A stretch of 64,000 nt of DNA, taken from NCBI RefSeq assembly GCF_964355755.1, contig NC_092677.1, forward strand, positions 13,662,601 through 13,726,600, given 5' to 3'. A program made the position numbers and the translations under genes. Every line of letters starts with the position of its first letter. Position 1 is the stretch's first letter. This document shows, piece after piece, positions 4,784 to 55,735 of this stretch. Below the pieces are notes generated by a model. It searched no databases. It was given only the letters and a program-made list of their open reading frames with translations, and was not told the DNA's origin. This DNA is from Antedon mediterranea (Eukaryota > Echinodermata > Crinoidea > Comatulida > Antedonidae).

Positions 4784-7700
4784 TCGTAAATAATATAAAT
4801 ATGGCCAGTACACGTCGTTCTCATTACGTTCTCTATCTGTGTTTTATTATATGCCATCTAAGATATAATTTCATCTTAAAAACCAGCACATATCATCCTG
4901 AAGCAAATATAAACACTGTGCAATGTATCAACGGACGTAAGTTTATGCAGTTTGACGATTATTTACCTCTAATCATTCACAACTTGCTAGGCCTCACTGT
5001 GCATTGCTGTACACACCTGCACACAACAATTAATACCGATGTCCACCTTTGTTATGAACAATGGCTGGGCATTCAGCCTGAAATTGCCGGCCTACTCGAT
5101 TGTAGACGCTGTAGGAACAATGGTACTACTCATCTCAAATACAGTGGTGCCAGAGTTCCATACTTTTCAGCTAGATCTTGTGTCTCAACTTTTCAACCTA
5201 CGCTTATCAAGTGTGGCGACATCGAAGTCAATCCCGGACCAACGATCGGCCAACATGTTTTAAATTCCACATGCTCTACCACGTCCAGTCATCAAAATCA
5301 AAACAATAACAACAACACTCCTAAGCTCTACTATCAGAACATTAGAAGCATAAAAAATAAATTAGATGTATACAACTCTGAATTGCAAGGTCATCTTTTA
5401 AATAATTCATTTGACTTCGTTTGTTTCTCTGAAACATGGCTCAATTCATTTGTTTCCGACTCAGAATTATACTGTCCTGGTTTCACCACACATAGGAAAG
5501 ACAGAAACGATGGTAGAAGGGGAGGCGGAATTATGTTGCTTACCTCCAACAAGTTTAAATCGAGACGATTGGTCCATCTTGAACATAAAGATGTGGAATT
5601 ACTATGGACTGAAATCAAAATGAGTAAAAGTAAGGTTGTACTTATCGGAGTCGTCTATAGAGCACCAAACAGCAATCGTGAGAGTATTTTAAAAATCGCC
5701 CAATTGGTTGAAGATGCAATGTCTACTTACCCCCGGCATCAACTCATCTTGGTAGGAGATCTTAACCTTCCCAACATTAAGTGGACAACTGATGGTACGG
5801 GATCAGCATCCACAAATTCAATTGGTGAACTATTCATTAACAGCTTGTTGAACGGTCTTAATTTGATCCAATGTAATGTTACGGCTACATGTAACAATAA
5901 TATTCTTGATTTAATTTTATGCAATTCTAAGGAACTTATTTCTGACATTGTTGTTGGTCAAGATATTTTTTCTTCTGACCATCGCTCTCTTATATTGTCT
6001 TTAAATTTTTATGTTACCAATATTAGTCATAATAGATTATATAGAAAATCTTATAATTTTAAAGCAATTAATGACAGCGACCTTATTGATCATTTCGACA
6101 AAGTTCCTTTTGATATCATTAACACCGAAGACAATGTTGATGATTGTGTAACTGTTTTTTACGATTTAATTGACGCCGCCCTCCGCGATCTTGTCCCCAT
6201 CAAAACATTCAGACGCCAAATGCCGCCATGGTTTGACCATGAAATTAGAGCTATCTTGAAACGTAAAGAACACCTTTTCAGAATGTGGAAAAAACATAAA
6301 CTAATACACTTTAAAAATGATTTCATTACGGCCAGAAAAACGTTCAAAAAGCTTGCCAAAAAGAATTACTCACAATATATCCGTTCCCTCTCTGATAGCA
6401 TAAAATCTAATCCCAAGCGCTTTTGGACATGGATCAAGACGAAAACAAAAACGTCGTCTTATCCGTCTGTTTTGAACTACGGGGACAAGGTCGCGGAGAG
6501 TGCGAAAGATAAAGCTATTTTGTTTAATTCATTTTTTCATTCTGTTTTTCAAAAATCTAGTTTAAGTATCACTGACCAACATCATGCTCTCCCTGAATCA
6601 TCCCTTGATTATTTAAGTATACCTGATATTCAGCCGGATTCTGTTTACAAATTGCTTACGTCTATCAAACCACATAAAGCTTCTGGCTGTGATGAGCTGA
6701 GTAACCATGTTTTAAAAGTTTGTGCGAAACCTCTCTCTATTCCTATCTGTTCTATTTTTAACAAATCTCTGACTTTTGGTAAATTCCCATCTTTCTGGAA
6801 GCAATCTAATGTTGTTCCTATCTACAAATCTGGTTCCAAGAAATCCGTCACCAATTACAGACCGATTTCAATTTTGCCTACCATCTCAAAACTTTTCGAA
6901 CGAGTCATGTATAATCACATTTGGTCCCATGTTCATTCTACCATCTCTCTCTATCAGCATGGTTTCGTTCCCAACAGGTCATGTGAAACAAATCTTGCTT
7001 GTCTTCTGACAACTGTGTATGATGCCATCAAGGGCAGAGCACAATGTGATGTTATATATACTGACTTCTCAAAAGCTTTTGATTTGGTGCCACACAATCT
7101 TCTTATTTTTAAACTTCAACGACTTGGTTTTAATCCTCATCTTTTGTCCTGGTTCAGAAGCTATTTGGATGGTAGACGTCAACGTGTAGTTATCGATGGC
7201 GAGGCATCTGAGTGGCTTCCAGTTCATTCCGGTGTTCCTCAGGGGTCAATCCTCGGTCCCCTCCTTTTTAATTTGTATGTGAACGATATTCCATCGCTGT
7301 TTCGCTATTCAGATTGTCTTATGTTTGCTGACGATCTAAAAATTATTAAAACTATCAACAGTTATGAAGATGCTGAAATGCTTCAGGGAGACCTTACTAA
7401 ATTTAGTTCCTGGTCCACTTTGTGGGGCATGATGTTAAACTCTTCGAAGTGCAATATTTTGTCCTTTACTTTAAATAAAAATAAAATTGTTTATGTCTAT
7501 TCCGTCGACGACAAACCTATTAATAAGGTGCATCAACATCGTGATCTCGGTATTATTTTAGATAGTTCCCTTACTTTTTCTTTTCATGTTGATCATCTTC
7601 TAAATAAATGCAATAAGCTGCTTGGGCTGATGTGGCGCAATGGAAAATATCTCGGTCGTTCTTCCAAAGTTTATCTATATATCACCTTAATCCAACCTAA

Positions 7701-8262
7701 TTTAGACTTTTGTTCTGTTATTTACAATTCAATCTCCAAAACCCAAGCCTCACGTATTGACCGACTCTATTCTAGATTTTTGCGCTACATCAGCCACAAC
7801 CACAATCAGAATAATCTTTTTAAATGTAACAATCTTTATAATTGTGATGATAAAAAAATATATCCTATATCTCCCCCTTCATTACGTAGATGTCACAATG
7901 ATCTTATTTTTCTTTTTAAATGTCTTCATTCTATTTTTGACTGCAACTTTATCTCCAATTTCGGTATTCGTGTTCCCGCCCGTAATTTAAGAAACAATAG
8001 TATCCTTTGTGTTCCCTGTTGTAGAGTCAATGTTCTCAAAAGTGGTTACATCAGTAGATTAAGTTTATATTATAATAGTTTAGTCCAGGCCCATCCCCAT
8101 ATTGACATTTTTAATTCCAATCTTTATCTGTTTCGTCGTAATTTAAGTGTTTCTGAGTTGTTGTAATTGTTTTGTATCTGTTAAACCAAGCTGTAAGTGG
8201 CGGATTTGTTTCTGCTGTTGTTTCTGGTTTTAAAAATAAAATAAAATAAAAAATAAAAATGA
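4784..8262 (+). mobile_element. CR1-like non-LTR retrotransposon with intact ORF
   Basis: A 3.4 kb ORF with APE-type endonuclease and reverse transcriptase is followed by a short 3' UTR and an AAATA-rich tail (about 8230-8262), as in CR1/L2-type elements. Compared with the paralogous empty site near 11565-11590, the insertion lies between CAGAAAATGAA (about 4774-4784) and AAAATGAAAATTGGCCAATC (from about 8256), suggesting a target duplication near AAAATGAA. Only ~17 bases separate the proposed 5' end from the ATG, so the 5' UTR is very short or truncated. A separate ORF1 is not seen. The 5' boundary is uncertain by several bases. Confidence 0.85.
4801..8166 (+). CDS. 2A-containing endonuclease/reverse transcriptase of CR1-like retrotransposon
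   Basis: This is an uninterrupted 1121-residue polyprotein. Residues 1-146 are a Cys-rich leader of unknown function that ends in CGDIEVNPGP (138-147), matching the 2A consensus D(V/I)ExNPGP; 2A sequences cause ribosome skipping between Gly146 and Pro147. The APE-type endonuclease follows: YYQNIRSIKNK, SETWL with Glu211, GDLNLPN with Asp320 and Asn322, and the closing SDH at 392-394. The reverse transcriptase carries NYRPISILPTISKLFE, YTDFSKAFDLVPH, GVPQGSILGPLLF and the catalytic FADD at 842-845. The C-terminal thumb/tail (LDFCSVIYN) matches the fragment at 61272-61985. 2A peptides upstream of the endonuclease are known from sea urchin and other invertebrate CR1-like elements, where the leader can act in protein targeting. 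No stop or frameshift is seen, so this copy may be recent. Confidence 0.92.
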   Translation: MASTRRSHYVLYLCFIICHLRYNFILKTSTYHPEANINTVQCINGRKFMQFDDYLPLIIHNLLGLTVHCCTHLHTTINTDVHLCYEQWLGIQPEIAGLLDCRRCRNNGTTHLKYSGARVPYFSARSCVSTFQPTLIKCGDIEVNPGPTIGQHVLNSTCSTTSSHQNQNNNNNTPKLYYQNIRSIKNKLDVYNSELQGHLLNNSFDFVCFSETWLNSFVSDSELYCPGFTTHRKDRNDGRRGGGIMLLTSNKFKSRRLVHLEHKDVELLWTEIKMSKSKVVLIGVVYRAPNSNRESILKIAQLVEDAMSTYPRHQLILVGDLNLPNIKWTTDGTGSASTNSIGELFINSLLNGLNLIQCNVTATCNNNILDLILCNSKELISDIVVGQDIFSSDHRSLILSLNFYVTNISHNRLYRKSYNFKAINDSDLIDHFDKVPFDIINTEDNVDDCVTVFYDLIDAALRDLVPIKTFRRQMPPWFDHEIRAILKRKEHLFRMWKKHKLIHFKNDFITARKTFKKLAKKNYSQYIRSLSDSIKSNPKRFWTWIKTKTKTSSYPSVLNYGDKVAESAKDKAILFNSFFHSVFQKSSLSITDQHHALPESSLDYLSIPDIQPDSVYKLLTSIKPHKASGCDELSNHVLKVCAKPLSIPICSIFNKSLTFGKFPSFWKQSNVVPIYKSGSKKSVTNYRPISILPTISKLFERVMYNHIWSHVHSTISLYQHGFVPNRSCETNLACLLTTVYDAIKGRAQCDVIYTDFSKAFDLVPHNLLIFKLQRLGFNPHLLSWFRSYLDGRRQRVVIDGEASEWLPVHSGVPQGSILGPLLFNLYVNDIPSLFRYSDCLMFADDLKIIKTINSYEDAEMLQGDLTKFSSWSTLWGMMLNSSKCNILSFTLNKNKIVYVYSVDDKPINKVHQHRDLGIILDSSLTFSFHVDHLLNKCNKLLGLMWRNGKYLGRSSKVYLYITLIQPNLDFCSVIYNSISKTQASRIDRLYSRFLRYISHNHNQNNLFKCNNLYNCDDKKIYPISPPSLRRCHNDLIFLFKCLHSIFDCNFISNFGIRVPARNLRNNSILCVPCCRVNVLKSGYISRLSLYYNSLVQAHPHIDIFNSNLYLFRRNLSVSELL

Positions 8263-8564: not shown

Positions 8565-9452
8565 ATGAATTCTACCGAAATTGAATCAGCAACAACAGTG
8601 ACAATAATATTCAGGACGGTCATATTCTTCATCATTATGCTTTTTGCAATTGTTGGTAATTGTTTAACTCTTGCTATAATCTATACTGTTGAATCACTTC
8701 ACACGAAAACGTACGCCTTTGTCGCGAATCTAGCAATCGCAGATCTTTTACTCGGTATATTGGTTATGCCTATTGTTCTTGCTGCTTCTATAAGTGACGG
8801 ATGGCCATTTGTACAAGACTGGCCATCCGTCTTCGGTCAATGCTACCTAACAAGCACTGCCACTCTGTGTGCAATATCAATTGAAAGGTATCATTCTATT
8901 ATCAACCCTTTACACTACGATTCAAAAATTATCATTTTATTATGTTGGACGTGGATCCAGTTTCTTATTTTCGTCATCATGGGATTTGGAAGAGTTGAAT
9001 ATATTCCTTATTCATTTATTTGTCTACACATGTGGCAAGAGAGCCATATTCTCACAATATCCTTGTCTGTCGTTGGTCTGTTTCTTCCGGCTTTATTAAC
9101 TGTCAAATCGTATTACCATATAGGTAAGTTAACTTTCCAGCAACTAAAGCGTGTTCAAAACGTTGCGACTATCGCATCAAATTCGACAAATGCTATGATG
9201 AAGGCCAAGATTAAATCCGCCATCGTCTTTGCAGTCCTCATTGGTACTTTTATGACATTGTTTTTGCCGTACCAAGTTGTTGTGAATTGTCAATTTTGGA
9301 AGATGTACTTACCAAATTGGTTTAAAACTTGTTCAATGTGGATGGCATTTATGACATCATCATGTAACCCTGTAATATATTGTCTGATGAATAATATAAG
9401 ACATTTAGAGACGGACTCAAAAAAATTCGACGTAAAATTCTTCGATCGCTAA
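8565..9452 (+). pseudogene. class A GPCR, damaged paralogue (open but probably non-functional)
   Basis: This intronless ORF of 295 codons is closely related to the receptor at 11897-12820. It keeps the TM1 GNCLTLAI motif, LAIADL of TM2, SIERYHSIINPL (ERY in place of DRY) and NPVIYCLMN of TM7. Three lesions stand out. An in-frame deletion at the start of TM3 (DW to QCYL, residues 86-94) removes the conserved disulfide cysteine 3.25. About five codons of intracellular loop 2 are missing (residues 118-122). A frame change after CLMN replaces the basic helix 8 with an unrelated tail. A membrane receptor with these losses is unlikely to fold normally, so it is listed as a pseudogene although no internal stop is present. 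It could still be translated. Its upstream region was interrupted by the hAT and CR1 insertions. Confidence 0.75.
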
Positions 9453-11896: not shown

Positions 11897-12820
11897 ATGA
11901 ATTCTACCGAAATGGAATCAACAACAGTGGCTATAGTTTTCAGAACGGTCATATTGTGTATCATTATGGTGGTTGCAATTGTTGGTAATTGTTTAACTCT
12001 TGCTATAATCTACACTGTTGAATCACTTCGGACAAAAACGTATGTCTTTGTCGCGAATCTAGCAATCGCAGATCTTTCAATCGGACTATTCGTTATGCCT
12101 ACTGTTCTTGCTGCTTCTATAAATGACGGATGGCCATTTGTACAAGACTGGATCTGCGAAGTGTCTTCGTTTATTAATGTACATTGCTACCTATTAAGCA
12201 TGGCTACACTATGTGCAATATCAATTGAAAGGTATCATTCTATAATTAACCCTTTACTTTATGCTTCGAGAATGAGTAAACGAAATGTTATCATTTTATT
12301 ATGTTGGACGTGGATTCAGCCATTTTGCTTCACCATTGGATTATTGGGAAAAGTCGGATACAACCCTTATTCATACACTTGTCTACCACATTTCGAGGAC
12401 ATCCCTATGTATGCAATGTTTCTATCTGTTATGTGCTTGTTTATTCCAGCTTCAATAACAGTCATAGCTTATTACCATATATACAAGTTAACTTTCCAGC
12501 AACTCAAACGCGTTCATCATTTCCCTACACCAATGGCATCGAATTCGACACATAATTTGATTAAGGCCAAGACAAAATCCGCCTTTGTCTTTGCAATTGT
12601 CATTGGTACATTTATGACATTGTTGTTGCCGTCTCAAATTATTGTGATTACTCAAACATTTGAAGTGTACTTACCAAATGGCTATACAACTTTTTCAACG
12701 TGGTTTTCGTTAATGACATCATCATGTAACCCGGTAATATACTGCCTTATGAATAGGCAATTCAGAAACGGACTTGGCAAAATGATGCGTATGCTTCGTC
12801 GATGGCTAGACCATGGATAA
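11897..12820 (+). CDS. class A (rhodopsin-like) orphan GPCR, intronless
   Basis: This is a 307-residue seven-transmembrane receptor in one exon. Residues 2-4 (NST) are an N-glycosylation sequon, and TM1 has GNCLTLAI (Asn31 = 1.50). TM2 has LAIADL (Asp59 = 2.50). Cys87 (3.25) can pair with Cys162 in extracellular loop 2. The TM3 end is ERY (111-113), TM6 has Pro245, TM7 is NPVIY (278-282), and a basic helix 8/tail follows (RQFRNGLGKMMRMLRRW). Position 3.32 is Asn94, not the Asp used by amine receptors, and 6.48 is Leu where most receptors have Trp, so the ligand cannot be named. It would signal through G proteins at the plasma membrane. Large intronless, lineage-specific receptor expansions are known in echinoderms. 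It is the best-preserved of the three copies here. Confidence 0.88.
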   Translation: MNSTEMESTTVAIVFRTVILCIIMVVAIVGNCLTLAIIYTVESLRTKTYVFVANLAIADLSIGLFVMPTVLAASINDGWPFVQDWICEVSSFINVHCYLLSMATLCAISIERYHSIINPLLYASRMSKRNVIILLCWTWIQPFCFTIGLLGKVGYNPYSYTCLPHFEDIPMYAMFLSVMCLFIPASITVIAYYHIYKLTFQQLKRVHHFPTPMASNSTHNLIKAKTKSAFVFAIVIGTFMTLLLPSQIIVITQTFEVYLPNGYTTFSTWFSLMTSSCNPVIYCLMNRQFRNGLGKMMRMLRRWLDHG

Positions 12821-31794: not shown

Positions 31795-32625
31795 TTAGTT
31801 GCTAACTGTTGTACGCTTTTCGTACAACTTATCATAAAATGGTTGTGAAATGTTAACATATTCTTGCACTATTTCTGGCAAATCTTCAAATTTTGGAAGT
31901 GGTTTGACAGACCCAGCCACGAATCCACCAGCGCTTAGACTGTTTCCATGAAAACCAATCATTTTATCTATGTTAAGGTAATCGTCGTCAGCATTCCATT
32001 GAACTGGCTGCTCAAGACCCCAGCTTAACATTTGCTCTGAAAACTCCAAACCAACCTCGTCACAGAGTATCTTCAGAATGCCTTTCGGGTTTTCAAGGAG
32101 ATCATCCGTATCCAAAACGAGTGGTTCCTTTCCAGTTTTATCTACAACATAATTGTAGAGCTCATGGAGTTCTTGAAAACCAAGACGAGGAGTAAAATAT
32201 GTTTTAAAAATGTCGACACCCAATTCAGGGTTAAAATTTTTCCAAACACGATACATTGACAGGTACGTCCTGATTGGATGACGTATGAGAAACGTATGTT
32301 GGTAGCCATCGGGTATTAAGTCATAGTTGCCGTTGAGATTAAAAGCAAAATCTTTGGCAAAAATAACTTTCTTACCCTCAAATTTCATTTCCATCTTTTC
32401 TTTAGTCGCTTGAAATGACAGGTCTTTTCTCATTGGTAGTTCAACTGTTAGATACCGCCGAAAGCGTTCGGGTCCGAGAAAAGCCGATGTTGTGAATGGT
32501 TCGTAGATAAGTTCGACATCGGGCACACACTCCATGCTTCGCATTAAGGCGGTTGTGAGAGAACGCGGCTGACTCCAAGCAATGAAGCGTATTTGTTTTA
32601 GCTTATCTCTACTTTCAGAACTCAT
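31795..32625 (-). CDS. sulfotransferase-fold protein (branched-chain aminotransferase-like protein family)
   Basis: A 276-residue protein in a single coding exon. SQPRSLTTALMRSM (18-31) is the P-loop-like 5'-phosphosulfate-binding loop, and RHPIRTYLSMYR (115-126) fits the 3'-phosphate-binding motif of PAPS-dependent sulfotransferases. YEPF (41-44) and KDF (91-93) are typical of this soluble subfamily, often labelled branched-chain-amino-acid aminotransferase-like although it has no aminotransferase domain. The substrate is unknown. No signal peptide or membrane segment is seen, so it is probably cytosolic. A TTTTTTTTTAG acceptor lies about 20 bases upstream of the ATG, so at least one 5' UTR exon is likely. 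Length fits the family. Confidence 0.85.
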   Translation of the reverse strand: MSSESRDKLKQIRFIAWSQPRSLTTALMRSMECVPDVELIYEPFTTSAFLGPERFRRYLTVELPMRKDLSFQATKEKMEMKFEGKKVIFAKDFAFNLNGNYDLIPDGYQHTFLIRHPIRTYLSMYRVWKNFNPELGVDIFKTYFTPRLGFQELHELYNYVVDKTGKEPLVLDTDDLLENPKGILKILCDEVGLEFSEQMLSWGLEQPVQWNADDDYLNIDKMIGFHGNSLSAGGFVAGSVKPLPKFEDLPEIVQEYVNISQPFYDKLYEKRTTVSN

Positions 32626-42405: not shown

Positions 42406-45400
42406 GGGGAAAAAAAAATATTGACAAATTTGTCTGTGTGTTTATTTCAGTACATCATTCACAAAACATTGAGAATAAATAAATATTAAAAATGTGTCTG
42501 CGTATTTATTTCAATACATCATTCACAAACATTGAGAATAAATACATATTGAAAAATTTGTCTGTTTATTTCAATACATCATTCACAAAACATTGAGAAT
42601 AAATAAATATTGGAAAATGTGTATGTGTGTTTATTTCAATACATCATTCACAATACATTGAGAATAAATAAATATTGAAAAATTTGTCTGTGCGTTTATT
42701 TCAATACATCATCACAATACATTGAGAATAAATATATATTGAAAAATGTTTCTGTCTTTTTTCAATACATCATTCACAAACATTGAGAATAAATAAATAT
42801 TGAAAAATGTTTCTGTCTTTTTTTCAATACATCATTCACAAACATTGAGAATAAATAAATATTGAAAAATTTGTCTGTGCGTTTATTTCAATACATCATT
42901 CACAAACATTGAGAATAAATAAATATTGAAAAATTTGTCTGTGCGTTTATTTCAATAAATCATCACAATACATTGAGAATAAATAAATATTGAAAAATGT
43001 TTGTCTTTTTTCAATACATCATTCACAAACATTGAGAATAAATAAATATTGAAAAATGTTTCTGTCTTTTTTTCAATACATCATTCACAAACATTGAGAA
43101 TAACTAAATATTGAAAAATTTGTCTGTGTGTTTATTTCAATACATCATCACAAAACATTGAGAATAAATAAATATTAAAAAATGTGTCTGTGTCTTTATT
43201 TCAATACAACATTCACAAACATTGGGAATAAATAAATATTAAAACATTTGTTGTTTTTATTTCAATACATCATCACAATACATTGAGAATAAATAAATAT
43301 TGAAAAATGTGTCTGTGTTTATTTCCATACATCATCACAATACATTGAGAATAAATGAATATTGAAAAATGTGTCTGCGTATTTATTTCAATACATCATT
43401 CACAAACATTGAGAATAATTAAATATTGAAAAATTTGTCTGCGTTTATTTCAATACATCATCACAATACATTGAGAATAAATAAATATTGAAAATTGTGT
43501 CTGCTTACTTATTTCATTACATCATTCACAAACATTTAGAATAAATATATATTGAAAAATGTGTCTGTGTTTTATTTCAATACATCATCACAAACATTGA
43601 GAATAAATAAATATTGAAAAATGTTTCTGTCTTTTTTTCAATACATCATTCACAAACATTGAGAATAAATAAATTTTGAAAAATGTTTCTGTCTTTTTTT
43701 CAATACATCATTCACAAACATTGAGAATAAATACATATTGAAAAATTTGTCTGTTTATTTCAATACATCATTCACAAAACATTGAGAATAAATAAATATT
43801 GGAAAATGTGTATGTGTGTTTATTTCAATACATCATTCACAATACATTGAGAATAAATAAATATTGAAAAATTTGTCTGTGCGTTTATTTCAATACATCA
43901 TCACAATACATTGAGAATAAATATATATTGAAAATTGTGTCTGCGTACTTATTTCATTACATGATTCACAAACATTGACAATGAATATATATTGAAAAAT
44001 GTGTCTGTGTTTTATTTCAATACATCATCACAAACATTGAGAATAAATAAATATTGAAAAATGTTTCTGTCTTTTTTCAATACATCATTCACAAACATTG
44101 AGAATAAATAAATATTGAAAAATGTTTCTGTCTTTTTTTCAATACATCATTCACAAACATTGAGAATAAATAAATATTGAAAAATTTGTCTGTGCGTTTA
44201 TTTCAATACATCATTCACAAACATTGAGAATAAATAAATATTGAAAAATTTGTCTGTGCGTTTATTTCAATAAATCATCACAATACATTGAGAATAAATA
44301 AATATTGAAAAATGTTTGTCTTTTTTCAATACATCATTCACAAACATTGAGAATAAATAAATATTGAAAAATGTTTCTGTCTTTTTTTCAATACATCATT
44401 CACAAACATTGAGAATAACTAAATATTGAAAAATTTGTCTGTGTGTTTATTTCAATACATCATCACAAAACATTGAGAATAAATAAATATTAAAAAATGT
44501 GTCTGTGTCTTTATTTCAATACAACATTCACAAACATTGGGAATAAATAAATATTAAAACATTTGTTGTTTTTATTTCAATACATCATCACAATACATTG
44601 AGAATAAATAAATATTGAAAAATGTGTCTGTGTTTATTTCCATACATCATCACAATACATTGAGAATAAATGAATATTGAAAAATGTGTCTGCGTATTTA
44701 TTTCAATACATCATTCACAAACATTGAGAATAATTAAATATTGAAAAATTTGTCTGTGTTTATTTCAATACATCATCACAATACATTGAGAATAAATAAA
44801 TATTGAAAATTGTGTCTGTGTGTTTATTTCAATACATCATTCACAAAACATTGAGAATAAATATATATTGAAAAATGTGTCTGTGTTTTATTTCAATACA
44901 TCATCACAAACATTGAGAATAAATAAATATTGAAAAATGTTTCTGTCTTTTTTTCAATACATCATTCACAAACATTGAGAATAAATAAATTTTGAAAAAT
45001 GTTTCTGTCTTTTTTTCAATACATCATTCACAAACATTGAGAATAAATAAATATTGAAAAATGTTCTGTCTTTTTTTCAATACATCATTCACAAACATTG
45101 AGAATAAATAAATATTGAAAAATTTGTCTGTGTCTTTATTTCAATACAACATTCACAAACATTGGGAATAAATAAATATTGAAAAATGTGTCTGTGTGTT
45201 TATTTCAATACATCATCACAATACATTGAGAATAAATAAATATTGAAAAATGTGTCTGTATGTTTATTTCCATACATCATCACAATACATTGAGAATAAA
45301 TGAATATTGAAAAATGTGTCTGCGTATTTATTTCAATACATCATTCACAAACATTGAGAATAAATAAATATTGAAAAATTTGTCTGCGTTTATTTCAATA

Positions 45401-45780
45401 CATCATCACAATACATTGAGAATAAATATATATTTAAAAAATGTGTCTGCCTCTTTATTTCAATAAATAAATTCACAAACATTGAGAATAAATAAATATT
45501 GAAAAATGCGTCTGTGTTTTATTTCAATACATCATCACAAACATTGAGAATAAATAAATATTGAAAAATGTTTCTGTCTTTATTTCAATACATCATTCAC
45601 AAACATTGAGAATAAATAAATATTGAAAAATGTGTCTGCGTATTTATTTCAATACATCATTCACAATACATTGAGAAAAAATATTTAAAAATATGTCCGT
45701 GTTTATTTCATTACATCATCAAAAAAATATTGAGAATATATAAATATTGACAAATGTGTCTGTGTGTTTATTCATTTCTT

Positions 45781-49140: not shown

Positions 49141-50939
49141 AAATTTTATTTCATAGGTTTTTTTTCCTATATATATTTTCAATGTTTTTCTTAGTAATTC
49201 TTGATAAATATGTTAATATTTTAATATTTTTGTGGGTAAATAATTTAAATGTTTTATGCATTTTTCTAACAAATGATCTAGTTTATTGACTTTTTGTTGA
49301 TTAAATAATGATTGCTTTTCTAGGTTTTTTATTCATAAATATGTACTTTTTATATACTTTCTTATATAGATATACCTTCTCATTTAGCAGGTCCATGACC
49401 GTCTTCTTGCTCGATTCTTCACTGTTGCTTCTTTTATTCAGAATATGTATTCTTTTTTTAATATTATATCCATTATATAAATATTATTCCTTCCTTTCCT
49501 TGTTTTACCACATATCTTCATAATATCATAATTTTCAATAGTTCTTCTCTATTTCTATGTCATCAATTGCTTTTGCTGCTCCACTATCATTTTCATTATA
49601 TGCTTCTCCACCCCTACTTCATTAAATATATCCTCATTCCTTCTGTGTGGAGTATAATGAAACATTTTCTTTCCCTGTAATCCATGTTTCGCATCCATAC
49701 AATCAACGTACCATACCCCTGATTTAACCATATCTTTTCTTGTTTTAATGCTTGCCTTGTCAGAAATAGAATTCCCTTTGCCCTTTCTATCCACCTTATT
49801 ATCTATCTATTTCTACCATGTTCTGTCTACCATTTTTCTCCTAAAGAGTAAGATCGATGTAACTTGTTCATCAATATATGTTTCTATTTTCTTATAAACA
49901 CACACAGGACCGTAAGGTTTCAACCCTACCACTTTTTGACAGACCTTTGACTATACCCTGTGTCCCGAAAAGGGGATTTGTTCCATCTTTTTGTGATCAC
50001 CTCACCACTTCCATTCTCGGGGTTTGGCACTGTCACATGATGTTAATTTTTCTATTATTGGTCTTTTCCTTCCATTATTTTTCCTTCTTCATTTATGTTA
50101 TTCATTATTTGCGATTACCACCTTGTCATCAGCCAATTTTTTTGTTTGTTCTAATTGTGCCCTCTGCTACTTTGACTCGACCTTTAGGACAAATGCTTCC
50201 TCGTAGAAATTCCATAATTCCTCCTCAACGCCTCTACACATCTTTGTTCTTTTTGATTATTCTCCCTCTTCTCTTCATATAGCTCCCATAATAAACGCCT
50301 GTAATCAACAATAGTTTTGTATTAAATATGCATCATTTCTAACCACTTTATCCTATAAAAGGTATTTTCATAACTTTTAAAACAGATGTATAGTTCATTG
50401 TCATGTCAATTTTTTCTCATCAAAAACACCCCATCCTTTCATCATTTACTTCTTCCTCTTTTAGAGATAACATTTTGTTTTGTTTCTGATCTGCTGCATA
50501 TAGGTAATCTATATAGTACTTTCCATCTGTGACTGCAAATAAAGATTCTAGTTAATATAGTTCCTTCTAATATCAATAATAATGTCCTTTCTCTTTTGAT
50601 AATTCCTGCTAATTATTTCACTGATTTCCTTCCTATTTTCTATGATTAATCAATTTCCTTACACTTTCTACTGATATCCAGTCTTTCTTTTCCTTGTCAG
50701 TTATTCACCATAGCTGTTAAGACTTTGGTAATTGTTTTTATTTTACCATTCCTTCCCTCACCCATATGTAAGAAAATCATCTCTTCAGTAATTCATGGAT
50801 TTTTTGGCTTCTACTGTAGCTTTTTGGCGTCATTGATATGCTTAATTGCACTGTTACTTTCTTCATAATCCATTTTCCTTCAGTTTTTTGCCTTTTATCT
50901 AGTATCTTAATTTCCTGTTGAGTGGAAAGGCAAATTACT

Positions 50940-51090
50940 GAAAAAATGACAATGCTGTGGGTATCAGTGGCTGGATCTCAATGGAGATACAAAAATAAAA
51001 AGCGAAAAGCTAAATCAAAACGATAAAGTAAACAGCCAGAAAAGTTAGCAGAGCTTTCGGGCAACACTAGCCCTTCATCAGTGCAAGTGA
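50940..51090 (-). mobile_element. probable Penelope-like element terminal fragment
   Basis: This short segment surrounds the hammerhead-like motif and interrupts the decayed retrotransposon. Sequence on both sides (50150-50420 and 51170-51440) belongs to the duplicated retrotransposon. No Penelope reverse transcriptase or GIY-YIG frame was found, so the family assignment rests on the ribozyme motif only. Confidence 0.45.
51048..51084 (-). ncRNA. minimal hammerhead-ribozyme-like motif
   Basis: Reading the minus strand from 51084: GCA (stem I), CTGATGA (conserved core), an extra A, GGGC with loop TAGTGTT and GCCC (stem II), GAAA (conserved core), GC, then T and C (positions 16.1 and 17, the cleavage base), then TGC (pairs with GCA as stem I). 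The AGCT around A15.1-U16.1 is self-complementary, as expected for minimal hammerheads that work as dimers in Penelope-like elements. The unpaired A before stem II is a deviation that may weaken activity. Confidence 0.6.
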
Positions 51091-51689
51091 AGGAATTTGG
51101 ATAACGTCATAGTATAAAGCTGGCAAGTGCTGCCTGGGTGGACAGGAATAAAAGAAATATATGTGTATTAAGTGCCCTCTGCTCCTTTGACTCCTTTAGT
51201 ACAAATGCTTCTGCTCGTAGAAATTCCTTGTATATAATATAAATTAGGCAACATAATTCCTCCTTGACACCTCTACACATCTTTGTTCTTTTTGATTTAA
51301 TACTCTCCCTCCTTTCTTCATATAGCTCCCAAAATAAATGCCTGTAATCAACAAAAAGTTTGTTTAAAATATGCATCATTTCTAACCACTTTATACTATA
51401 AAATTTCATAATTTTCAAAACAGATGTATAGTTCATTGTCATGTTCTTGTGACATTTCTCCCATTACACGTAAAAATAGCATCTCTTGTACCTTTGCTTT
51501 TAACAAACCCAATTGATAATTTACTGTACAATATAATCTGAGAATAATAATGTCAGTCAACTATTCATTGCTCTGAGCTTTATTTTAGAAGTATAGATCT
51601 AGTATATGTTTAATTATACTTACAGTTATGTGTTCCTCACATCTCTGTAGGTTTATCTTTGATTCTAACCATATACCGTACCTTATTTT

Positions 51690-51780
51690 TAGACTCTACA
51701 GCTCACTATGTTGGTTGGTCGGTAAACACTAACTCAAATTTGCGCATGCGACTGCAGCCATGTATATGGCCTTGTTAAGT
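51690..51780 (+). mobile_element. GTCGG-type dispersed element, internally deleted
   Basis: TAGACTCTACAGCTCACTAT then GTTGGTTGGTCGG gives the left part, and GCATGCGACTGCAGCC then ATGGCCTTGTTAAG gives the right end, which matches the right end of the longer copy at 62203-62978. Confidence 0.55.
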
Positions 51781-52620
51781 TCAGTTATTTTTGTTTCTCC
51801 TTAATTTGCTTTAGCATGTATTCCATATCTATTCCTCCCGCCTTTCCAATATTTAGTTTTTCCTAGCCTTCCTCATCTCACACCCCATCCTTTCATCATT
51901 TACTTTGTCTCTGATCTGCGGCATATATGTATTCTATATATTCTTTCCATCTGCGACTTACATAAAGATTCCAGTTAATATAGTTCCTTCTAATATCCAT
52001 AATAATGTCGTTTCTCTTTTGATAATTCCTGCTAATTATTTCACTGCTAATTTCCTTAAAGATTCCACTTCTTTTTTAATATCCTTCATCATAATAGAAA
52101 CAAGGCTGTGGTGTGAACCAACATCAGCTCCGGGATAGCTATGGCAATTTTTTACTGCATCTTGTATCTCTCTATAAATTGTTCTTCCTTGCAAAACCAA
52201 ATTTTGAAAATTACAAACTTATAGATATTAGCAAATGCCATTAATTTATCTATCTCCTCTGCCCATTTTATAGTTCATTTTCTTTTTGATAGTAATCCAG
52301 TAAATCATCTATTTCTTTTCATAGACTCTTGTTGGCATGTAAAGCAGTCTATTGACAGAAATGACTCAATTCTTGTCATAAGTCTTTCATATTTAATTTC
52401 AATAATGTTTTTTGCATATACGGCATATTGTTCTTGTTTTTCACTTCCAGAATTTATCAATTTTTATTCATTAAATGTTAAGCCAATATCACCAGTTTTT
52501 GTTAATCTTGTATCAATATATTGAATTGATCTCTATTTATCTCCATCAGCCATCTGCACATTTTCTTTTACTCTTTTTAAAATCAAAGTTCGCACATTCC
52601 ATGTGCCTATTTTCAAGTGG

Positions 52621-53448: not shown

Positions 53449-53520
53449 TTTTTTTTTTAGACAAGAGCGACTCTACAGCTCACTAAGTCAGTCAGTTGGT
53501 CGGTCGGTCTGTTTTTTATA
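53449..53520 (+). mobile_element. GTCGG-type dispersed element, short fragment
   Basis: TTTTTTTTTAGACAAGAGCG, then ACTCTACAGCTCACTAAGTC and TTGGTCGGTCGGTCTG. Truncated on the right and followed directly by AT-rich DNA leading into the 31 bp satellite. Confidence 0.5.
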
Positions 53521-53607
53521 TATTTATTGATGAATTATTCTACTTTTGTACTGTTTTCAATAGATTGTGTATAATTTCATATTTATTTAGGAATATATTT
53601 TTTTATA

Positions 53608-55735
53608 ATAAATATGTTTTTCTATGCATTAGTTGATATGATATATGTTTCCTTATGCATTAGTTGATATGATATATGTTTTTCTATGCATTAGTTGATA
53701 TGATATATGTTTTCCTATGCATTTCTTGATATGATATATGCTTTCTTATGCATTACTTGATATGATACATGTTTTCTTATGCATTAGTTGATATGATATA
53801 TGTTTTCCTATGCATTTCTTGATATGATATATGTTTTCCTATGCATTACTTGATATGATATATGTTTTCTTATGCATTAGTTGATATGATATATGTTTTC
53901 CTATGCATTACTTGATATGATACATGTTTTCTTATGCATTAGTTGATATGATACATGTTTTCTTATGCATTTCTTGATATGATATATGTTTTCTTATGCA
54001 TTTCTTGATATGATATATGTTTTCCTATGCATTACTTGATATGATACATGTTTTCTTATGCATTAGTTGATATGATACATGTTTTCTTATGCATTAGTTG
54101 ATATGATATATGTTTTCCTATGCATTACTTGATATGATACATGTTTTCTTATGCATTACTTGATATGATATATGTTTTCTTATGCATTTCTTGATATGAT
54201 ATATGTTTTCTTATGCATTTCTTGATATGATATATGTTTTCTTATGCATTTCTTGATATGATATATGTTTTCTTATGCATTACTTGATATGATATATGTT
54301 TTCCTATGCATTACTTGATATGATACATGTTTTCTTATGCATTAGTTGATATGATATATGTTTTCTTATGCATTTCTTGATATGATATATGTTTTCCTAT
54401 GCATTTCTTGATATGATATATGTTTTCCTATGCATTACTTGATATGATACATGTTTTCTTATGCATTAGTTGATATGATATATGTTTTCCTATGCATTAC
54501 TTGATATGATACATGTTTTCTTATGCATTACTTGATATGATATATGTTTTCTTATGCATTTCTTGATATGATATATGTTTTCTTATGCATTTCTTGATAT
54601 GATATATGTTTTCTTATGCATTTCTTGATATGATATATGTTTTCTTATGCATTTCTTGATATGATATATGTTTTCTTATGCATTTCTTGATATGATACAT
54701 GTTTTCTTATGCATTTCTTGATATGATACATGTTTTCCTATGCATTTCTTGATATGATATATGTTTTCTTATGCATTTCTTGATATGATATATGTTTTCT
54801 ATGCATTTCTTGATATGATATATGTTTTCTTATGCATTTCTTGATATGATATATGTTTTCTTATGCATTTCTTGATATGATATATGTTTTCTTATGCATT
54901 AGTTGATATGATATATGTTTTCTTATGCATTTCTTGATATGATATATGTTTTCTTATGCATTTCTTGATATGATATATGTTTTCTTATGCATTTCTTGAT
55001 ATGATATATGTTTTCTTATGCATTTCTTGATATGATATATGTTTTCTTATGCATTTCTGGATATGATATATGTTTTGTTATGCATTTCTTGATATGCTAT
55101 ATGTTTTCTTATGCATTTCTTGATATGATATATGTTTTCTTATGCATTAGTTGATATGATATATGTTTTCTTATGCATTTCTTGATATGATATATGTTTT
55201 CTTATGCATTTCTTGATATGATATATGTTTTCTTATGCATTTCTTGATATGATATATGTTTTCTTATGCATTTCTTGATATGATATATGTTTTCTTATGC
55301 ATTTCTTGATATGATATATGTTTTCTTATGCATTTCTTGATATGATATATGTTTTCTTATGCATTTCTTGATATGATATATGTTTTCTTATGCATTTCTT
55401 GATATGATATATGTTTTCTTATGCATTTCTTGATATGATATATGTTTTCTTATGCATTTCTTGATATGATATATGTTTTCTTATGCATTTCTTGATATGA
55501 TATTATGTTTTCTTATGCATTAGTTGATATGATATATGTTTTCTTATGCATTTCTTGATATGCTATATGTTTTCTTATGCATTTCTTGATATGATATATG
55601 TTTTGTTATGCATTTCTTGATATGATACATGTTTTCTTATGCATTTCTTGATATGATGTTTTCTTATGCATTTCTTGATATGATATGTTTTCTTATGCAT
55701 GTCTTTGTATGATACATTATGTTTTTCTATGTTTT
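53608..55735. repeat. 31 bp satellite array (about 2.1 kb)
   Basis: Close to 70 units of 31 bp: TGATATGATATATGTTTTCT followed by TATGCATTTCT. Variation is concentrated at two places: the three bases after GCATT (TTC, ACT or AGT, by phase) and C/T in TTTTC(C/T)TATG. The left half mixes variants, while 54.9-55.6 kb is almost uniform for one variant, as expected from recent local expansion. Since 31 is not a multiple of 3, frames through it change every unit; it is not coding. Confidence 0.95.

What the first reader, a model, noticed from the sequence alone, without database searches (positions are those of the whole stretch)
51048..51084. Hammerhead-ribozyme-like motif of the minimal, dimer-forming type
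The minus strand has CTGATGA, a GGGC/GCCC hairpin and GAAA in the right order. A 3 bp stem I (GCA/TGC) and the self-complementary AGCT at the place of stem III match minimal type I hammerheads described in Penelope-like retroelements. A single extra A sits between the core and stem II. The motif stands in a short segment that interrupts another retroelement.
Basis: partly seen in the sequence, partly recalled or inferred. Interest (0 to 1): 0.72.

Follow-up and report, generated by a model that had tools for sequence, protein, structure and literature searches.

The report
Hammerhead ribozyme in Penelope-like retroelement repeats
The spotted 37 bases are a real and very common motif in this genome: a tiny hammerhead-ribozyme sequence that sits in the end repeats of a Penelope-like jumping gene, a kind already described in other organisms.

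Summary
The motif is present as described (window 51084-51048, minus strand). It lies in a 236-bp piece (51161-50926) of a repeat about 99% identical to other copies in the genome. The core pattern occurs 492+526 times in 354 Mb; the reversed control pattern 0 times. Longer copies continue upstream into a frame with reverse transcriptase and GIY-YIG endonuclease. One element carries the intact ribozyme in both flanking repeats, 3,163 nt apart. Against: Rfam gives no hammerhead hit even at E<=10, folding in context does not favour the ribozyme, and cleavage is untested. New here: a census of insertion 5' ends. They pile up at TCACTTG, just before stem I, suggesting that the ribozyme forms the extreme 5' leader of the element's RNA; a second hot spot lies at A15.1/G15.2; the predicted cleavage site is no clear peak, so most templates were probably uncleaved. 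An apparent core-mutant family proved to be, in the 4 of 32 copies read, part of a larger repeat. New member of a known kind.

The parts
50926..51161 (-). 236-bp fragment of the 3' part / pseudo-LTR of a Penelope-like element ('tail'; tail position p = window 51162-p)
   Evidence: query 290-525 of 701 matches the scored genome copies at 98-100% identity, flanks do not; common 3' end and variable 5' ends in 24 of 24 compared copies
51048..51084 (-). minimal type I hammerhead motif, 37 nt
51082..51084 (-). stem I 5' strand GCA
   Evidence: read; pairs with TGC 51050-51048
51075..51081 (-). core CTGATGA (C3 at 51081)
51074..51074 (-). extra unpaired A between core and stem II
   Evidence: required by the pattern, so kept in 1018 places by construction
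51059..51073 (-). stem II GGGC/GCCC with loop TAGTGTT
51055..51058 (-). core GAAA; its last A (51055) is A15.1, first base of AGCT and place of a 5'-end hot spot
51052..51055 (-). self-complementary AGCT in the place of stem III (can pair with a second copy)
   Evidence: dimer evaluation
51050..51051 (-). predicted cleavage site between C17 (51051) and U1.1 (51050)
   Evidence: position by hammerhead numbering (recalled); activity not tested
51085..51090 (-). initiator-like TCACTT; main cluster of insertion 5' ends at tail 71-77, presumed RNA start
   Evidence: TCACT named as Inr-like in a rotifer Penelope pLTR (PMC3846280, passage)
51112..51116 (-). TATA-like TATAC about 28 nt upstream of the presumed start
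   Evidence: sequence; function inferred

Best explanation
The window holds a dead, truncated fragment of a Penelope-like retroelement whose pseudo-LTR encodes a minimal type I hammerhead. In complete elements the same motif stands in both pseudo-LTRs, about 3.2 kb apart, so that a read-through transcript carries two copies. Shown: the motif, its copy number, the RT/GIY-YIG frame, the two-pLTR layout, and 5'-truncated and tandem copies. Inferred: transcription starts at the initiator-like TCACTT, so that the ribozyme forms about nt +5 to +41 of the RNA; two copies join through AGCU/AGCU in place of stem III and cleave between C17 and U1.1, possibly with help of the element's protein. Cleavage would cut off the capped leader and separate unit-length RNA, but most new insertions seem to have been copied from RNA that was not cleaved.
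For: 1018 core copies against 0 for the reversed pattern. RVT_1 E=6.3e-4 and GIY-YIG E=1.3e-4 in L025; open 650-aa RT+GIY-YIG frame in L030, ending 227 nt before the ribozyme. 156 protein matches in the genome. Of 24 loci L026-L049, 22 carry recognisable tail sequence. Both pLTRs with an intact motif at C7:11785094 and 11788257; a second element has a perfect 5' and a mutated 3' motif (L059, L037). Tandem motif pairs 171 nt apart in L031 and two tails 28 nt apart in L011. 5' ends: 24 of 64 loci on C1:0-29.4 Mb start at tail 71-77, 3.9 expected if even. The isolated 37-mer folds with stems I and II, -9.9 kcal/mol. Literature passages.
Against: No Rfam hammerhead match at E<=10 in the window stretch nor at E<=1 in seven loci. 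In longer context the predicted fold is not the hammerhead (67-nt and 87-nt stretches), and the best dimer fold (-21.8) is not the double hammerhead (-17.1). Only 7 of 24 loci L026-L049 hold a strictly intact core of this family. Conservation of the motif is not exceptional within the tail: 26 of 200 windows of 37 nt are as low or lower in differences. Cleavage itself is untested, and the cleavage site is not a clear 5'-end peak (4 of 52 loci).
Confidence: 0.85

Rival explanations
1. The stretch is kept as a DNA core promoter or as an RNA landing structure of the element, and the hammerhead resemblance is a relic without catalysis in the cell.
For: 5' ends cluster at an initiator-like TCACTT beside the motif; the cleavage site is no clear peak; in the Anolis element catalytic mutants did not change insertion in vitro and no RNA-seq ends at the cleavage site were found (PMC11167929, passages).
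Against: The full core with the self-complementary AGCT is what a dimeric hammerhead needs; in the same Anolis paper the ribozyme did cleave when protein was added.
Confidence: 0.2
2. A non-autonomous animal retrozyme: short tandem monomers with a canonical type I hammerhead, amplified through small RNA circles.
For: Short solo copies and some short-spaced direct repeats exist (L031, L011); retrozymes and Penelope hammerheads are reported together in animal genomes (PMC7229834, passages).
Against: The copies are the continuous 3' end of an RT/GIY-YIG element, 5'-truncated at many places, and there is no stem III. Most of the 24 copies are single.
Confidence: 0.05
3. The hot spot of 5' ends at A107/G108 (A15.1/G15.2) is caused by one-base microhomology with TA-rich targets, not by the folded ribozyme stopping the reverse transcriptase.
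For: Targets are TA-rich; in L069 and L078 the target duplication itself continues with A, so the true end may be G108 (by eye). The pattern asks for ATAT.
Against: 13 of 52 loci at one position in 31; other A- or TA-starting positions have 5 or fewer. One search, which excludes A before the junction, still finds 22 joined to other sequence, against 11 for T112. Four more are internal deletions of stem II ending at the same base (though that pattern fixes the base).
Confidence: 0.5
4. Chance resemblance.
For: Short motif; loose core patterns do occur by chance (control 95+100).
Against: 1018 against 0 in the control, in the predicted element type.
Confidence: 0.02

Closest known systems
Minimal type I hammerheads in pseudo-LTRs of metazoan Penelope-like elements (Cervera and de la Pena 2014; Lunse, Weinberg and Breaker 2017; both papers not held, known here only through references and passages of others)
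   Same: type I order, no real stem III, both flanking repeats, many dispersed copies, possible dimer action (PMC7761336, PMC6155905, PMC6466107; passages)
   Different: an extra A between core and stem II, whose frequency in published examples I could not check; motif about 230 nt after the stop codon and at the presumed RNA start
PAc, Penelope-like element of Anolis carolinensis (PMC11167929, passages)
   Same: pLTR-ORF-pLTR, RT and GIY-YIG, hammerhead in the pLTR
   Different: there the ORF starts within the hammerhead; here the motif in L051 lies well upstream of the conserved coding stretch
Penelope families of Adineta vaga (PMC3846280, passages)
   Same: pLTRs of about 0.2 kb, partial tandems, inverted pLTRs, target duplications of 8-10 bp, Inr-like TCACT
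   Different: no hammerhead named in the text (term 'ribozyme' found 0 times); far lower copy number
Animal non-LTR retrozymes (PMC7229834, passages)
   Same: type I hammerhead in a retroelement
   Different: retrozymes are short non-coding tandem monomers with canonical motifs

Membership tests
Penelope-like element, endonuclease-bearing | reverse transcriptase | tested here: met
   RVT_1 E=6.3e-4, 20.0 bits, below the curated cut-off 29.6; YIDD motif in L025 and L030
Penelope-like element, endonuclease-bearing | C-terminal GIY-YIG endonuclease | tested here: met
   PF01541 E=1.3e-4, 22.7 bits, cut-off 22.6 in L025; 21.8 bits in L017, just below
Penelope-like element, endonuclease-bearing | pseudo-LTRs on both sides of the ORF | tested here: met
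   L051 with L060; L059 with L037
Penelope-like element, endonuclease-bearing | 5'-truncated and partly tandem copies | tested here: met
Penelope-like element, endonuclease-bearing | target-site duplications | tested here: inconclusive
   strings of 11-19 bp shared at both ends and adjoining the 5' junction in L099, L105, L106 and by eye in L069, L078, L090; many flanks are TA repeats, where it cannot be judged; none seen for the window copy
Penelope-like element, endonuclease-bearing | clade within Penelope-like elements | not tested
   no reference set of eukaryotic proteins at hand
Hammerhead ribozyme, type I | core CUGANGA ... GAAA and H17 | tested here: met
Hammerhead ribozyme, type I | stems I and II | tested here: met
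   3 bp and 4 bp; isolated 37-mer folds so
Hammerhead ribozyme, type I | stem III | tested here: inconclusive
   absent in one copy; only AGCU/AGCU between two copies; dimer energy does not favour the double hammerhead
Hammerhead ribozyme, type I | match to an Rfam hammerhead model | tested here: not met
   none at gathering score or E<=10, none in seven loci at E<=1; no positive control run. The canonical family is therefore not claimed, only the minimal Penelope variant
Hammerhead ribozyme, type I | self-cleavage | not testable with these tools
   needs an RNA assay
Non-LTR retrozyme | short non-coding tandem monomers with canonical motif | tested here: not met
   copies run into an RT/GIY-YIG frame; no stem III

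The most novel reading that the evidence does not exclude
The ribozyme is the extreme 5' leader of the element's RNA (start at TCACTT, stem I from about nt +5), and the 5' ends of genomic insertions are a fossil record of its behaviour: most templates were uncleaved (ends at +1 and just after), a fraction stopped the reverse transcriptase at the edge of the folded core (A15.1/G15.2), and few or none began at the cleavage product U1.1. The ribozyme then acts mainly as a regulated 5'-end switch or roadblock rather than as a needed processing step.
Probability: 0.3. Interest if true: 0.55.

Novelty: new member of a known kind. Interest (0 to 1): 0.4.

Why it matters
The role of the minimal Penelope hammerheads is called unknown in the reviews I saw in passages (PMC7761336). 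If insertion ends do record RNA ends, any genome with many Penelope copies can be used to ask whether the ribozyme cut the RNA before it was copied, without an experiment. Here the answer leans to 'mostly not', in line with the in vitro result for the Anolis element (PMC11167929).

Tried and rejected
Rfam searches for a hammerhead: no hit; most low hits were microRNA families in AT-rich stretches and were ignored.

A core-mutant family: the pattern with C3 changed to A occurs 20+12 times and first looked like a sub-family that had multiplied without a working ribozyme. Four of the 32 were read (L107-L110): they are about 98-99.5% identical to each other over nearly all of the 3.7-3.8 kb fetched, past both ends of the Penelope piece. 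They are copies of a larger repeat that contains one internally deleted element, so they say nothing on ribozyme-free retrotransposition. Rejected. The other 28 were not read at their flanks.

Selection on the motif: the 37-nt window differs less than the tail average (0.0154 against 0.0345 per site in 42 distinct tails) but 26 of 200 windows do as well or better; not decisive.

Peak at the cleavage site: 4 of 52 loci at T112, Poisson p about 0.09; one search gives 26 places, of which by eye 14 are point changes of C17, 1 an internal deletion and 11 truncations. Not a clear peak. One search counted 53 rows because one locus (C1:1909755) was entered twice; 52 is right. The p-values assume evenness and were computed with 53; in its hand-typed table for C1 one locus at 66 was left out and one near-duplicate at 87 left in, which leaves the total (64) and the count at 71-77 (24) unchanged. 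Three near-duplicate places were dropped before that count.

Limits of the census: it sees only copies with ATAT close upstream; listings stop at 100 rows, so searches were read in part; ATAT must lie nearer the junction at the upstream edge of each window; one locus at 74 (C1:2758590) belongs to the larger repeat above.

Papers not held: Cervera 2014, Lunse 2017 and Arkhipova 2017.

Full report
What is there. On the minus strand at 51084-51048 the window reads GCA, CTGATGA, A, GGGC, TAGTGTT, GCCC, GAA, AGCT, C, TGC. This is the order of a type I hammerhead: 3-bp stem I, core, 4-bp stem II, GAAA, and AGCT instead of a stem III hairpin, with C as residue 17 before the predicted cut (numbering recalled). 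The motif occurs once in the window and 0 times in shuffles. In the whole genome (354 Mb, 18 contigs, unnamed) the pattern CTGATGAAGGGN{2,12}CCGAAA occurs 492+526 times, against 0+0 for the same pattern read backwards. Counted by eye, 80 of the 100 listed places are letter-identical to the window copy.

What carries it. A 701-base query around the motif matches other places only over window 51161-50926, at 98-100% identity in the best rows; 40 of 1800 candidates were scored. The 24 copies compared (L002-L025) share one 3' end (...CCTTTGGAT...) followed mostly by TA-rich sequence, and have different 5' ends, as 5'-truncated retrocopies do. The longest of them run upstream into open frames. L025 gives RVT_1 (E=6.3e-4, below the curated cut-off) and GIY-YIG (E=1.3e-4, at the cut-off). 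L030 has a 650-aa open frame with YIDD and the GIY-YIG part, ending 227 nt before the motif. A search with the GIY-YIG part finds 156 matches, listed from 53 to 100% identity. These are the marks of an endonuclease-bearing Penelope-like element.

Both repeats. Fetching places with the N-terminal part of the frame gave L051, where the whole 236-bp repeat also stands upstream of the frame. With L060 downstream, the element on C7 has an intact motif on both sides, at 11785094 and 11788257, 3,163 nt apart; the C2 element (L059, L037) has an intact 5' motif and a 3' motif with GCCC changed to GCCA (coordinates by arithmetic from the locus starts). Short direct repeats of the motif also exist: 171 nt apart in L031, and two tails 28 nt apart in L011.

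Older copies. Of the 24 loci L026-L049 (4, 20 chosen over the identity range), 22 hold recognisable tail, and 7 hold a strictly intact core of this family. Loss of the core in old copies is what neutral decay gives. In 42 distinct tails the motif differs less than the tail mean, but 26 of 200 windows are as good, so I do not claim selection from this.

Against activity. No Rfam hammerhead model matches; I ran no positive control, and the minimal form lacks stem III. The isolated 37-mer folds with stems I and II at -9.9 kcal/mol, but in 67- and 87-nt stretches other folds win, and the best dimer fold (-21.8) is not the double hammerhead (-17.1). In the Anolis element the ribozyme cleaved only with protein added, and its mutants did not affect insertion in vitro (PMC11167929, passages).

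Census of 5' ends. Because new copies land mostly in TA-rich DNA, patterns of the form ATATN{0,30}anchor pick copies whose 5' end lies within 30 nt of an anchor. Tail positions are used (window = 51162 - position). Raw matches: 41-71, 385; 63-93, 1144; 94-124, 140; about 123-153, 40 rows or 14 places. Many rows are the same place with several ATAT starts. On C1:0-29.4 Mb, where the four listings are complete, 24 of 64 places start at 71-77 (TCACTTG region), 3.9 expected if even, and 2 at 89-106, 10 expected. The peak sits on the initiator-like TCACTT, with TATAC about 28 nt upstream; an A. vaga Penelope pLTR is described with a TATA box and an Inr-like TCACT (PMC3846280, passage). In L105, L106 and L099 a string of 11-19 bp shared by both ends adjoins this 5' junction. 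An inverted pLTR in the larger repeat L107-L110 also starts exactly at 74. The simplest reading is that the RNA starts there, so that the ribozyme is its leader; this also explains why stem I is so short.

Second hot spot and cleavage site. Among 52 places read in 94-124, 13 start at A107 (A15.1), 4 at T112 (first base after the predicted cut), 4 in 93-104 together (corrected for one double entry). With the base before A107 not A, 30 places are found: 4 point changes, 4 internal deletions of stem II, 22 joined to other sequence, one of these an inverted pLTR piece (classes by eye; flanks L061-L082). The flank comparison, with low-complexity filter on, shows one related pair (L079, L080); for L077 it used the wrong place. 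With the base before T112 not C, 26 places are found: 14 point changes, 1 internal deletion, 11 truncations. So A107 is favoured over T112, and T112 is not a clear peak. A15.1 is where the non-Watson-Crick extension of stem II (A9-G12, G8-A13, N7-A14; recalled) ends, so a stop of the reverse transcriptase at the folded core is attractive; but one-base microhomology with TA targets is not excluded, and in L069 and L078 the end may be G108.

Conclusion. The finding is a new member of a known kind: the minimal Penelope hammerhead. The extra A before stem II is real and common here; whether published examples share it I could not check, since the two key papers are not held. The census of insertion ends is the part I did not find described in the listings; the library lacks most subscription papers, so this is no claim of priority.

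Noticed in passing
window 44000-45770: Array of about 62-64-bp tandem units
   Followed up: no
window 53512-54000 and on: Array of 31-bp tandem units
   Followed up: no
window 4801-8166: 1121-aa open frame with endonuclease and reverse transcriptase domains, a LINE-type element
   Followed up: no
window 8565-9452 and 11897-12820: Two open frames of rhodopsin-type 7TM receptors in the same orientation
   Followed up: no
window 31795-32625: Open frame with a sulfotransferase domain
   Followed up: no
window 50213-50623 and 51252-52046: Repeated stretches 1.04-1.42 kb apart on either side of the Penelope fragment; nature unknown
   Followed up: partly
L022:1797-3067: About 18 tandem units of about 68 bp made of the last part of the Penelope tail (tail 162-225): a satellite seeded by a retroelement end
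   Followed up: no
L043:1515 (+) and L031 (-): Other hammerhead-like motifs with different letters, e.g. CTGATGA GTGAGTTGCACGACTCAC GAAAC in L043 and CTGACGA GATCTAATAAGATC GAAAC in L031; no Rfam hit at E<=1
   Followed up: partly
L107-L110: A larger repeat of at least 3.7 kb with tandem units of about 155 bp at one end that contains an internally deleted Penelope element and an inverted pLTR
   Followed up: partly
G000:C4:61864-62222 and L030:1-358: The 5' flank of the L030 element is a 99% identical direct duplicate of about 359 bp
   Followed up: no
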